64,000 nt of DNA, from the NCBI GenBank assembly GCA_018399015.1, contig CP073761.1, positions 372,001 through 436,000 of the forward strand. The letters run 5' to 3'. The notes under the pieces are model-generated. The model did not search any database and was not told the DNA's origin. It saw only the letters and a list, made by a program, of their open reading frames with translations. The translations under genes and the position numbers were made by a program. Positions 44,523 to 48,400 of this stretch are shown here, one piece after another. Every line of letters starts with the position of its first letter. Positions within the stretch are counted from its first letter, which is position 1. This DNA is from Cyanobium sp. M30B3 (lineage in GTDB: Bacteria > Cyanobacteriota > Cyanobacteriia > PCC-6307 > Cyanobiaceae).

Positions 44523-45578
44523 ATGACGATCGCTGCAGGGCGCTTGCCCCAGCGGGGATGGTTCGACGTCCTCGACGACTGGCTCAAGCGCGACCGCTTC
44601 GTTTTTGTGGGGTGGTCCGGTCTGCTGCTGTTCCCCACCGCCTATCTGGCGCTGGGCGGCTGGCTCACCGGCACCACCTTCGCCACCTCCTGGTACACCC
44701 ACGGCATTGCCAGCTCCTACCTGGAGGGCTGCAATTTCCTCACCGCCGCCGTCAGCACCCCCGCTGACGCCATGGGCCACAGCCTGCTGCTGCTCTGGGG
44801 CCCCGAGGCCCAGGGCGACTTCGTGCGCTGGGTCCAGCTGGGCGGCCTCTGGCCCTTCGTGGCCCTGCACGGCGCCTTCGCCCTGATCGGCTTCATGCTG
44901 CGTCAGTTCGAGATCGCTCGCCTGGTGGGCATCCGCCCTTACAACGCCATCGCCTTCTCCGGCCCGATCGCGGTGTTCGTCAGTGTCTTCCTGATGTACC
45001 CGCTGGGCCAGAGCAGCTGGTTCTTTGCCCCCAGCTTCGGCGTGGCCGCCATCTTCCGCTTCCTGCTGTTCCTGCAGGGCTTCCACAACTGGACCCTCAA
45101 CCCCTTCCACATGATGGGCGTGGCCGGGATCCTGGGCGGTGCCCTGCTCTGCGCCATCCACGGCGCCACGGTGGAGAACACCCTGTTTGAGGACGGCGAG
45201 CAGTCGAACACCTTCAAGGCGTTCGAGCCCACCCAGGAAGAAGAGACCTATTCGATGGTCACCGCCAACCGCTTCTGGAGCCAGATCTTCGGGATCGCCT
45301 TCTCCAACAAGCGCTGGCTGCACTTCTTCATGCTGTTCGTGCCGGTGATGGGTCTGTGGACCAGCAGCATCGGCATCATCGGTCTGGCCCTCAACCTGCG
45401 CGCCTACGACTTCGTGTCGCAGGAGATCCGCGCCGCTGAGGACCCCGAGTTCGAGACCTTCTACACCAAGAACATCCTTCTGAATGAAGGTCTGCGTGCC
45501 TGGATGGCACCGGCTGACCAGCCGCACGAAAACTTCGTCTTCCCTGAAGAGGTACTGCCCCGCGGTAACGCTCTCTGA
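44523..45578 (+). CDS. psbD: Photosystem II D2 protein
   Basis: Reaction-centre core subunit of PSII, 351 residues, normal length. Typical stretches: [66 protein letters not shown] (with the chlorophyll-ligand histidine region), [34 protein letters not shown] (iron and quinone side) and [32 protein letters not shown]. psbC does not follow; a terminator does. It is therefore a monocistronic copy, like the second psbD found in many cyanobacteria beside psbDC. Confidence 0.98.
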
Positions 45579-45619: not shown

Positions 45620-45645
45620 AAAGCGCCCCGAAAGGGGCGCTTTTT
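45620..45645 (+). terminator. Intrinsic terminator of psbD
   Basis: A 10-bp stem AAAGCGCCCC / GGGGCGCTTT closes a GAAA tetraloop and runs into T5. Because the 3' arm starts AAAGGGG and the 5' side is A-rich, it can also act for the convergent dioxygenase gene, whose stop begins at 45645. It lies 42 bases after the psbD stop. Confidence 0.95.
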
Positions 45646-46484
45646 CATGGCCCCACCGCCGCGGCGGTCATCCGCTGCCAGAAGCTGCGCTCCGCAGCCT
45701 CCTGCCTGGCATTGGCCTCGCGCAGGAAGGGGGCCAGAGCGGCCAGGTTCAGCAGCCAGTGGTTCAGGCTGCGCAGCGGCCAGCGCAGCGGCCGCTCGAA
45801 GTCCACGAACAGCACCACCCGGTAGCCGTCGGTGTCGTTCCACACCTGGTGGTTGTAGGTGTCGTCGAACACCAGGCAGCGGCCCTCCTGCCAGGTGTGG
45901 ATCTGATCGGCGATGCGGATGCGGCACTGCTCCCGCGGCTCCGGCACCATCAGGGCCAGGTGCAGGCGCAGCACCCCGGCCCAGGCTCCCCGGTGGGGCG
46001 GGATCTGCTTGTGGGGCGACAGGATCGAGAAAAAAGCGGTGGTGCAGCCGGGGATGGCCGCCAGCACGCGCATCGTTTCCGGGCAGCGCCGGGCGTTCTC
46101 CGTGCAGTTCATGCCCACGCCCTTGAGAAAGAAGGTCTTCCAGTTGTCGTCCTTCTGGATGCTGCCCACCTCCCGCAGGATGTCCTGGAAATTGGGCATG
46201 GCCTCCCGGTAGGTCATCACCGCATCCAGTTCGCGGCGCACCTCCTGCCAGTTGGCCTCCACCTGGCCGATCCAGCTGAACTGGTCCGCCGCAAACACCG
46301 GCCGATCCCCGTGCAGTGCAAAGCGGCACACCAGGCTCTCCAGCGCGCCATGGACCCAGCGGCGGAGCCGTGCCTTGCGGTTGCGGGCCGGAAAGGTCCA
46401 GTGCCGCCTGGCCGGATCCTGCTGGCGGCGGCGGGGACGGGGTTGGGCTGCACCGGGGGTCAAGGGCCTGTTGTTCGCGATCAC
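45645..46484 (-). CDS. Aspartyl/asparaginyl beta-hydroxylase-like dioxygenase
   Basis: A 279-residue protein of the Fe(II)/2-oxoglutarate-dependent Asp/Asn hydroxylase family. The double-stranded beta-helix carries HRGAWAGVLRLHLALMVP (first iron histidine), CRIRI, then the W-x-EGRCLVFDDTYNHQVWND segment with the second histidine and RVVLFVDFERPL. A long N-terminal basic region and helices precede it. Bacterial members often modify lipid A, peptides or antibiotics; target unknown here. It ends on the psbD terminator. ATG 46484. Confidence 0.88.
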   Translation of the reverse strand: MIANNRPLTPGAAQPRPRRRQQDPARRHWTFPARNRKARLRRWVHGALESLVCRFALHGDRPVFAADQFSWIGQVEANWQEVRRELDAVMTYREAMPNFQDILREVGSIQKDDNWKTFFLKGVGMNCTENARRCPETMRVLAAIPGCTTAFFSILSPHKQIPPHRGAWAGVLRLHLALMVPEPREQCRIRIADQIHTWQEGRCLVFDDTYNHQVWNDTDGYRVVLFVDFERPLRWPLRSLNHWLLNLAALAPFLREANARQEAAERSFWQRMTAAAVGP

Positions 46485-46631
46485 TGCTGAGCGTATGCAC
46501 TCCCCAGCGGGCGGTCCTGCTCCTTCACCCCTAGGATTGGCGGGTTACGTCAGCAGTGACGTGGAGTTCGGCCCTGGGCCGGCCTCCGAACACGTTGCCA
46601 GCTGGCCTTATCCCCACAGGAGGAGGTGTCC

Positions 46632-46685
46632 ATGCAATCCAGTTGTTTCACCAAGGGTCTGCTGATCGCGGAGAACGCCGGCTGA
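46632..46685 (+). CDS. Putative 17-residue leader peptide
   Basis: ATG 46632 is preceded at 5 bases by AGGAGGAGG (46618-46626), the most consensus-like Shine-Dalgarno noticed in this window, where most genes have none. The frame runs 17 codons (MQSSCFTKGLLIAENAG) to TGA. It is followed 56 bases later by the stem at 46742-46789. Too short to judge by codon use; it may be an uORF controlling the porin or part of a small RNA. Confidence 0.35.
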   Translation: MQSSCFTKGLLIAENAG

Positions 46686-46741
46686 TTTCGGCACCTCAAC
46701 CCTGATCAAACGGTTCTGCCATCGACGCGGACCCGGCGAGA

Positions 46742-46796
46742 GCCCCCGCTGGTCTGGATCTCCACCCGGAGAGCCGAACCAGCGGGGGCATCGTTT
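46742..46796 (+). terminator. Hairpin with weak T-run before the porin gene
   Basis: Arms GCCCCCGCTGGT (46742-46753) and ACCAGCGGGGGC (46778-46789) pair perfectly over 12 bp. The 24-base loop contains a smaller stem TCTCC-ACCC-GGAGA. ATCGTTTTG follows, a modest U-tract. It could terminate a leader RNA that starts upstream or act as a transcriptional attenuator for the porin. Confidence 0.6.
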
Positions 46797-46960
46797 TGAT
46801 GTCCACCCTGTTGATGTCCACCGTCCCTCCCCGCACGGGTCGTCTGCTGAACGGGACACAGGCCATTGTGCGCTCTGGCACAGGGAGGCTGGAGCTTCGA
46901 GTGCTAGGCCCTGAAACTGTGTTCCGGCGCATTGCGCCCATCTGTGTGAGGAACACCCCC

Positions 46961-48400
46961 ATGAAACTCTTCCAGCAACTGCTGGTGGCTCCTGCGGCCC
47001 TGGGTCTGCTGGCCCCCGTGGCCGCAACCGCCGCCGAGGTCAACCTGACCGGCGTCAACCAGTACGCCACCGAGGAGCAGGTCACCAGCATCTCCCAGTT
47101 CTCGGACGTCCGTCCCACCGACTGGGCCTACCAGGCTCTCTCCAACCTGATTGAGCGCTACGGCTGCGTGGCCGGTTATCCCGACGGCACCTACAAGGGT
47201 GGCCGCGCCATGACCCGCTTCGAGGCTGCCGCTCTGCTGAACGCCTGCCTCGACCGCGTCACCGAAGTGACCGACGAGCTCAAGCGCCTGATGGCCGAGT
47301 TCGAGAAGGAACTCGCCGTGCTCAAGGGCCGCGTGGACGGCCTGGAGGCCAAGGTGACTGAACTGGAGGCCAACCAGTTCTCCACCACCACCAAGCTCAA
47401 CGGTATCGCCACCATGGTTCTGGGCGGTGCCGGCAACACCGGCGCCGGTGACAAGGTCACCGCCAACTACGACGTTCGCCTGAACTTCGACACCAGCTTC
47501 ACCGGTGAAGACCTGCTGCGCACCACCCTGCGTTCCGGCAACTTCGCCCGTTCGGCCCTGGGTGGTCGGGGCAGCTCCCTGTCCCTCATGGAAGTGGCCT
47601 TCCAGGAAGACGGCGGCCTGATCGGTGGCGGTGTTGATGTGGTTGGCATCAACCGCCTCTTCTACCAGTTCCCCGTGGCCGACGGCTTCAAGGTCACCTT
47701 CGGTGCCAAGGTCCGTCAGGACGACATGCTGGCCATGTGGCCCAGCGTGTACCCCTCTGACTCGGTCCTCGACCTGTTCACCTACGCGGGTTCCCCCAAC
47801 ACCTACCCCCTCACCCTGGGTGCCGGTGCCGGTGTGTCCTGGACCTCCGGTGGCTTCAGCCTGAGTGCTCTGTACGTCTCCCGTGAGGCTGCTGCGGAAA
47901 ACTCCCGCAATGGCCTGGGTGAAGGCATCACCACCACCGTTCAGGCCGGCTATGCCGGTGAGAACTTCGGTGCTGCCCTGGCTTACACCTACAACGACGC
48001 CAGCACCGCCAACACCTTCCAGAACATCGGCAATCTGGGCGGCAGCAGCAACAACATCGGCCTGGCTGGCTACTGGCAGCCCTCCGACAGCGGCTGGATC
48101 CCCTCGATCAGCGCCGGCCTCGGCTGGGCTGACTTCAACCGTGACGCCTGGAACTGGTACGCCGGTCTCCAGTGGAGCGACATGGGCATCGAGGGCAACG
48201 ACCTCGGCTTCGCCATCGGCTCCAACGGCTACTCCGACGGCGGCCCTGGCCACAGCACCGGTGTGGGTCTGGAGGTCTGGTACAAGTTCCAGGTCACCGA
48301 CAACATCAGCGTGACCCCCGCCTTCTTCTGGGTGGAGAACGACGTTCGTGGTATCGACGATGTGGTTGGCGGTCTGATCAAGACCACCTTCAAGTTCTGA
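46961..48400 (+). CDS. SLH-domain carbohydrate-selective porin (OprB/Som type)
   Basis: A major outer-membrane protein of cyanobacteria. Signal peptide at residues 1-24 (MKLFQQLLVAPAALGLLAPVAATAA). An SLH domain follows at about 45-105 (FSDVRPTDWAYQALSNLIERYGCVAGYPDGTYKGGRAMTRFEAAALLN), then a coiled coil (ELKRLMAEFEKELAVLKGRVDGLEAKVTELEAN) that spans the periplasm, then a beta barrel ending in the aromatic TFKF needed for Bam recognition. 479 residues. Codons are strongly C-ending and uniform, as in a highly expressed gene. An intrinsic terminator follows. Confidence 0.93.
   Translation: MKLFQQLLVAPAALGLLAPVAATAAEVNLTGVNQYATEEQVTSISQFSDVRPTDWAYQALSNLIERYGCVAGYPDGTYKGGRAMTRFEAAALLNACLDRVTEVTDELKRLMAEFEKELAVLKGRVDGLEAKVTELEANQFSTTTKLNGIATMVLGGAGNTGAGDKVTANYDVRLNFDTSFTGEDLLRTTLRSGNFARSALGGRGSSLSLMEVAFQEDGGLIGGGVDVVGINRLFYQFPVADGFKVTFGAKVRQDDMLAMWPSVYPSDSVLDLFTYAGSPNTYPLTLGAGAGVSWTSGGFSLSALYVSREAAAENSRNGLGEGITTTVQAGYAGENFGAALAYTYNDASTANTFQNIGNLGGSSNNIGLAGYWQPSDSGWIPSISAGLGWADFNRDAWNWYAGLQWSDMGIEGNDLGFAIGSNGYSDGGPGHSTGVGLEVWYKFQVTDNISVTPAFFWVENDVRGIDDVVGGLIKTTFKF

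What the first reader, a model, noticed from the sequence alone, without database searches (positions are those of the whole stretch)
46485..46960. Strong-SD mini-ORF and attenuator-like hairpin upstream of the major porin
A 17-codon frame with AGGAGGAGG sits before a 12-bp stem with nested loop stem and U-rich tail, then the porin. This resembles leader-peptide attenuation or a small RNA gene, neither known to me for cyanobacterial porins.
Basis: partly seen in the sequence, partly recalled or inferred. Interest (0 to 1): 0.6.

Follow-up and report, generated by a model that had tools for sequence, protein, structure and literature searches.

The report
Abundant cyanobacterial small RNA with mini-ORF
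The short reading frame and hairpin before the porin gene look like a stand-alone small RNA gene, a relative of a very abundant but unexplained RNA of cyanobacteria, rather than a switch for the porin; its own short frame is built into the stem of its fold.

Summary
In detail: AGGAGGAGG (46618-46626), a 17-codon frame (46632-46685) and a 12-bp hairpin with nested stem (46742-46789), folding beyond chance (z -5.3). A covariance model finds the element in 147 of 271 family genomes, one copy each except one genome, and in 28 genomes of the same class outside the family at E up to 0.01. A model built only from outside copies hits the window back at the same place (1.3e-6). The outside copies fit the published sRNA family Sye_sRNA1/ncl0160: near psbD or cobB, short ORF, very abundant, no function reported. 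The window holds a picocyanobacterial branch: 17 codons instead of 23-25, another frame across a shared motif. Added here: ORF codons pair with the strand just before the terminator, with strong covariation, and a covarying 5' hairpin precedes the ORF. Porins often keep their own upstream signals also when the element is far; folding with the ORF held open leaves the terminator intact. Best reading: an independent, translated small RNA whose fold ribosomes open. Function is inferred.

The parts
46532..46537 (+). TAGGAT, -10-like box at a place where many relatives also carry TAnnnT-like boxes; inferred transcript start about 46543
   Evidence: read by eye from the upstream sequences; the consensus scan found no promoter
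46549..46606 (+). 5' hairpin GUCAGC-A-GUGACGU...ACGUUGC-CA-GCUGGC with a one-base bulge and a 4-nt GAAC bulge
   Evidence: single folds; 12 of 15 pairs change on both sides among 42 sequences, 0 of 500 shuffles as high
46618..46626 (+). Shine-Dalgarno AGGAGGAGG (runs into AGGAGGTG)
   Evidence: GGAGGAGGTG at 90% or more in 34 sequences
46632..46685 (+). mini-ORF, 17 codons, MQSSCFTKGLLIAENAG, stop TGA
   Evidence: 93 of 94 matches open with exactly 17 codons; starts GTG 51/ATG 42; stops TGA 84/TAA 5/TAG 4
46655..46734 (+). long-range rod: ORF GGGUCUGC (46655-46662) with GCGGACCC (46727-46734), then GCGGA with the strand around 46714-46719
   Evidence: window folds; consensus; covariation in distant members
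46712..46733 (+). competing local hairpin GGUUCUGC/GCGGACC that forms when the ORF is kept unpaired
   Evidence: constrained folds
46742..46797 (+). terminator-like hairpin, 12 bp plus nested stem, ATCGTTTT tail
   Evidence: 12 of 18 pairs of the terminator helix with change on both sides (alignment fitted to the model)

Best explanation
46543-46798 is a self-contained small RNA gene (about 255 nt) of the Sye_sRNA1/ncl0160 family, with its own promoter and terminator, not a cis-attenuator of the porin. Shown here: homology across cyanobacteria, an ORF with fixed length and strong ribosome site, ORF codons forming the 5' arm of a covarying rod that ends at the terminator, and a covarying 5' hairpin before it in picocyanobacteria. 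Inferred (about 0.35 on its own): what is selected is translation itself rather than the peptide. A ribosome entering at AGGAGGUG melts the rod, the 3' arm refolds into a local hairpin, and this change in shape sets the stability or exposure of a very abundant RNA, making it a reporter of translation that acts away from its own locus.
For: R1, built from 34 copies, hits 147 of 271 family genomes at E up to 0.001, one copy each except G045 with two, and 35 of 194 genomes of a phylum sample at E up to 0.01: 6 in the family, 28 others of the class (best 1.1e-15) and one short doubtful hit. R2, built from 17 outside copies, hits the window at 1.3e-6 and 18 other family genomes at the same element. 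[quoted passage not shown] its TSS and that of somA are 2,714 nt apart. In locus L238 a psbD-like frame ends just upstream and a second porin-like frame starts 2,736 nt after the element's match start (2639 + 97). ncl0160: 23-25 aa, ATG/GTG start with RBS. Rod covariation: 11 of 25 pairs change on both sides, 97.6% of cells paired, 0 of 500 shuffles as high. Translation rather than peptide: start and stop codons vary only among starts and stops; wobble positions of codons 9-14 and 16 hardly vary, codon 15 being the exception; the frame across GCCGGCUG differs by 2 nt between clades (spacing 22 in the 85 of 94 that fitted the pattern, 20 in 17 of 17).
Against: No RNA-seq or ribosome data for this organism could be read; promoter and start are by eye, and a consensus scan found none. 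The Shine-Dalgarno is predicted mostly paired (mean unpaired probability 0.26 over 90 copies, 0.15 in the window). Loose but lasting synteny with porins (17 of 20; 11 of 20) leaves room for a tie to the porin, and the porin's own signals are less frequent where the element is far. The element is dispensable for some: 124 of 271 family genomes have no match, among them two near-complete ones of the window's genus (G008, G010). R2 missed at least two genomes (G161, G165) that R1 hits. The ribosome-gating step has no direct test. The published transcript is about 200 nt, shorter than inferred here.
Confidence: 0.8

Rival explanations
1. Transcription attenuator of the porin: ribosome position on the leader decides between termination at 46797 and read-through into the porin.
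For: Leader ORF, competing pairings and terminator-like hairpin lie in order before the porin; porin 113-162 nt after the element in 10 loci of this genus and within about 1 kb in 11 of 20 loci outside the family.
Against: Porin starts within 700 nt in only 19 of 94 loci; porin-specific upstream signals also occur when the element is far (inverted repeat 15 of 32, hairpin 14 of 32, against 65 and 20 of 3000 random stretches); ORF held open leaves the terminator intact; I saw no antiterminator overlapping its arms; no control-codon run.
Confidence: 0.07
2. It is a small mRNA whose 17-residue peptide is the functional product.
For: Strong ribosome site, fixed length, start and stop kept in 93 of 94 matches; a peptide was also proposed for ncl0160.
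Against: Wobble positions are as frozen as the others in most of codons 9-16; the C-terminal part is read in another frame in the two clades; covariation inside the ORF shows RNA-level selection.
Confidence: 0.2
3. It is an ordinary trans-acting base-pairing sRNA and the ORF is incidental or secondary.
For: Stand-alone, structured, terminated, reported as abundant; context variable.
Against: The ribosome site and exact frame would not be kept for that alone. No pairing to the porin start region beyond shuffles in 9 of 10 genomes; in one (L002) 9 of 200 shuffles were as low (without accessibility). Other targets were not searched.
Confidence: 0.2

Closest known systems
Sye_sRNA1 (S. elongatus UTEX 2973; PMC6091082, section 13 and passages read)
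   Same: psbD neighbourhood, short ORF in the matching locus L238, stand-alone, conserved structure
   Different: published transcript about 200 nt; here inferred about 255 nt, with a covarying 5' hairpin and a gene inserted between psbD and the element
ncl0160 (Synechocystis/Nostoc; PMC4734099, passages read)
   Same: short ORF with ribosome site, ATG or GTG start, all three stops used among members
   Different: 23-25 residues, stops mostly TAA/TAG (TGA 2 of 83); here 17 residues, TGA 84 of 93, and another frame over GCCGGCUG
Yfr103 (PMC5069720, section 8 read)
   Same: very abundant structured ncRNA of marine Synechococcus and some Prochlorococcus
   Different: seven paralogs of 290-328 nt in CC9605; this element is single-copy in every matching genome except G045; sequence of Yfr103 not seen
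Axmann et al. 2005 cluster 229 (PMC1242208, passages and part of Table 1 read)
   Same: untested putative ncRNA shared by MIT 9313 and WH 8102, alignment length 161
   Different: no coordinates in the text read, so identity is only a possibility
trp-type leader-peptide attenuators (recalled)
   Same: leader ORF, competing pairings, terminator hairpin
   Different: no terminator/antiterminator exchange seen, no control codons, no fixed downstream gene

Membership tests
Sye_sRNA1/ncl0160 sRNA family | homology of sequence and structure with members outside picocyanobacteria | tested here: met
   R1 to outside genomes, best 1.1e-15; R2 back to the window 1.3e-6. The published sequences themselves were not at hand
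Sye_sRNA1/ncl0160 sRNA family | location downstream of psbD or cobB (reported for most homologs) | tested here: met
   psbD 44523-45578 lies upstream on the same strand, with one opposite-strand gene between. In pattern-scan loci: psbD on the same strand upstream in 63 of 111, many loci being cut short; within 500 nt in 17 of 79
Sye_sRNA1/ncl0160 sRNA family | short ORF with ribosome site | tested here: met
   but 17 codons, not 23-25
Sye_sRNA1/ncl0160 sRNA family | abundant transcript of about 200 nt, lowered by high light | not testable with these tools
   no expression data at hand
leader-peptide transcription attenuator | mutually exclusive terminator and antiterminator set by ribosome position | tested here: not met
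   terminator folds in all three states computed for the window
leader-peptide transcription attenuator | fixed downstream gene in the same transcript | tested here: not met
   porin near in 19 of 94 loci; opposite-strand neighbours
leader-peptide transcription attenuator | run of regulatory codons in the leader | tested here: not met
   codon table of 77 distinct ORFs
Yfr103 | several paralogs per genome (seven in CC9605) | tested here: not met
   one match per genome except G045 with two
Rfam families | match at gathering score | tested here: not met
   window; outside loci L218-L221

The most novel reading that the evidence does not exclude
A small RNA kept across cyanobacteria in which the act of translation, not the peptide, is conserved: the mini-ORF is one arm of the RNA's main stem, so ribosome entry switches the fold of one of the cell's most abundant RNAs and reports translational state in trans.
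Probability: 0.25. Interest if true: 0.75.

Novelty: new variant of a known kind. Interest (0 to 1): 0.45.

Why it matters
The family is reported as among the most abundant RNAs of well-studied cyanobacteria, and the two papers read give it no function. Placing single-copy members in Synechococcus, Cyanobium and some Prochlorococcus, and showing that the ORF is part of the fold while its frame shifts between clades, gives a sharp, testable question: is it the peptide, the RNA or the ribosome passage that is selected? It also removes a tempting but unsupported porin-attenuator story.

Tried and rejected
Porin attenuation: rejected on context, porin signals and folding. Direct pairing of the RNA with the porin start region: 10 genomes tested, one at 9 of 200 shuffles, nine between 58 and 183 of 200. 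Yfr103: rejected by copy number. Known Rfam families: none. Viral carriage: one exact-pattern scan, no hit. Hfq co-occurrence: the Pfam model gave weak matches in 21 of 271 genomes and none over its cut-off, so the test was uninformative. A promoter scan found nothing. Literature on a porin leader: searches (14 papers listed; 20 of 113 listed) showed none in their listings. Passages of PMC7368042, PMC3219970, PMC2662882 and PMC5386190 did not name the element; PMC5386190 calls another sRNA, Ncr0700, the most abundant transcript of Synechocystis 6714, at odds with the rank that PMC6091082 gives this family there. The two ISME J papers that I looked up by DOI for marine picocyanobacterial sRNAs are not held and supplements could not be read, so an earlier naming of this element in picocyanobacteria cannot be excluded.

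Rows dropped or cut: for the 5' hairpin alignment 42 of the 46 references prepared were used; L175, L176, L193 and L209 were left out because the 5' motif was unclear to me. For the distant alignment 17 of 20 loci were used; L234, L235 and L241 were left out as near-duplicates, and L225, L226, L228 and L236 were cut at the 3' end. Only the rod pairs were counted. The A2 alignment is fitted to the model's structure, so counts lean towards it. Loci L031-L141 were found by an exact pattern inside the ORF and are biased there; 12 of the 93 sources come from them. Some matches come from the same genome twice over (for example L024/L054, L019/L188). One search counts sequences, not independent events. 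Searches selected porins that carry GTGTGAGGA, so the frequency of that motif itself is not tested.

Full report
What is there. The stretch 46611-46800 folds at -92.3 kcal/mol, z -5.3. The porin at 46961-48400 is an SLH/OprB porin; psbD (44523-45578) lies upstream, with an Asp/Asn hydroxylase gene on the other strand between.

It is conserved, and not as a porin leader. A DNA search matched 42 of 99 genomes, counting the window's own and two (G008, G058) that match only the porin end. Model R1 matched 147 of 271 family genomes, one copy each except G045 with two; two near-complete genomes of the window's own genus, G008 and G010, have no match. An exact-pattern scan found 111 stretches; the 80 listed titles are mostly Synechococcus, Cyanobium, Prochlorococcus or unnamed cyanobacteria, with Aphanothece, Vulcanococcus and one bin labelled Bifidobacterium. 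Many matchless genomes are small, in genera that I take to be high-light Prochlorococcus (recalled, not tested). Among pattern-scan loci with at least 700 nt downstream, 19 of 94 have a porin starting within 700 nt; among those with at least 7 kb, 17 of 20 have one somewhere on the same strand. In 12 of 13 loci that I picked among the rest the next long frame is on the opposite strand; the 13th ends too soon. So the neighbourhood is old and loose, but the element does not depend on being next to a porin.

The porin has its own signals. Upstream of porins there are a TTGTG...CACA-like inverted repeat, a GGCGCATTGCGCC hairpin and GTGTGAGGA before the start codon (window 46866-46882, 46926-46938, 46944-46952, where GTGTGAGGA was the selection). 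Counted in family loci: with the element within 320 nt, 25 of 34 have the repeat and 24 of 34 the hairpin; with the element farther away, 15 of 32 and 14 of 32; in random 170-nt stretches of the same loci, 65 and 20 of 3000. The signals thus do not need the element, though they are rarer far from it, where second porin copies are included. GTGTGAGG is complementary to the Yfr1 core; Yfr1 is in this genome. That Yfr1 controls porins is recalled.

Family identity. In a phylum sample R1 matched 35 of 194 genomes at E up to 0.01: 6 in the family, 28 others of the class, and one short doubtful hit outside it. The outside copies examined keep the ribosome site and a short frame, and most a GCGGATAG-type terminator (16 of 20), with peptides ending RLCAGAVL or near it in most; of 20 outside loci, 11 have a porin-like frame within about 1 kb downstream, 8 of them Pfam-confirmed. 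Others have Pterin_4a, a PALP enzyme, an opposite-strand gene or no family. R2, from outside copies only, matched 114 of 291 genomes, 19 of them in the family including the window at 1.3e-6, and missed at least G161 and G165, which R1 hits. Two papers describe what these distant copies appear to be: Sye_sRNA1, about 200 nt, the most abundant sRNA in S. [quoted passage not shown] and ncl0160, with a putative 23-25 residue peptide in 83 homologs (PMC4734099, passages read). The spacing from Sye_sRNA1 to somA, 2,714 nt between TSSs, agrees with 2,736 nt from the element to the second porin-like frame in L238 (that frame not Pfam-tested). Neither paper reports a function in the text read. The picocyanobacterial copies use TGA in 84 of 93, against 2 of 83 in the ncl0160 set, so that set can hardly contain many of them.

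Anatomy. In 17 distant copies the ORF strand pairs with the strand before the terminator: 97.6% of cells paired, 11 of 25 pairs with change on both sides, 0 of 500 shuffles as high, and partners slid by 1-3 columns give at most 50.5% paired. The same rod varies little in picocyanobacteria (3 of 16 pairs with change on both sides), where the terminator stem carries most covariation (12 of 18). In 42 picocyanobacterial copies a 5' hairpin ends just before the ribosome site: 96.0% paired, 12 of 15 pairs with change on both sides, 0 of 500.

Translation or peptide. The frame is open with exactly 17 codons in 93 of 94 matches; the exception is a degenerate second copy in G045. Start codons are GTG or ATG and stops vary among the three, yet codons 9-14 and 16 show little or no wobble variation. 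The motif GCCGGCUG sits 22 nt after GGGU in the 85 of 94 picocyanobacterial matches that fitted the pattern and 20 nt in 17 of 17 others, so it is read in different frames. This favours selection on RNA and on being translated over selection on the peptide, at least for its second half. That step is inference.

Mechanism. With the ORF held unpaired, or a ribosome-sized stretch at the stop held unpaired, the window RNA refolds so that the 3' arm makes a local hairpin, and the terminator stays; in the second state the 5' hairpin is also predicted to rearrange. So ribosome passage can change the fold but, on these computations for one sequence, not termination. Against easy loading, the ribosome site is mostly paired in predictions (0.26 unpaired on average over 90 copies). 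Pairing with the porin start region is not beyond chance in 9 of 10 genomes.

Verdict. A structurally distinct picocyanobacterial branch of a known, abundant, unexplained sRNA family; the porin-attenuator reading is unlikely; the ribosome-gated fold is the most interesting open reading.

Noticed in passing
window 46944-46952; G000:C1:2288275-2288286: GTGTGAGGA before the porin start is complementary to the Yfr1 core; Yfr1 (RF01116) is present in this genome.
   Followed up: partly
window 46866-46882: CRP/FNR-like inverted repeat TTGTG...CACA upstream of porins, found at loci with and without the element nearby (25 of 34 and 15 of 32).
   Followed up: partly
L033 upstream of its porin: A CCATTGTGCGCACTGGCACAGG-like unit is repeated in tandem about four times before the porin.
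   Followed up: no
L188:7817-7979 (G045): A second, degenerate copy of the element about 5 kb from the first, with the mini-ORF broken after two codons.
   Followed up: partly
window 45645-46484: Asp/Asn beta-hydroxylase gene on the minus strand between psbD and the element; seen only at L001-L009, L040, L086, L101, L110 and L116, and not at the same-genus locus L012.
   Followed up: partly
L240, L228, L232 (Pfam); L231, L237 (by sequence): A pterin-4a-carbinolamine dehydratase gene follows the element in several distant cyanobacteria, before the porin in L240 and L231.
   Followed up: partly
L058: A metagenome bin labelled Bifidobacterium breve carries the element with a porin downstream; presumably a mislabelled or mixed bin.
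   Followed up: no
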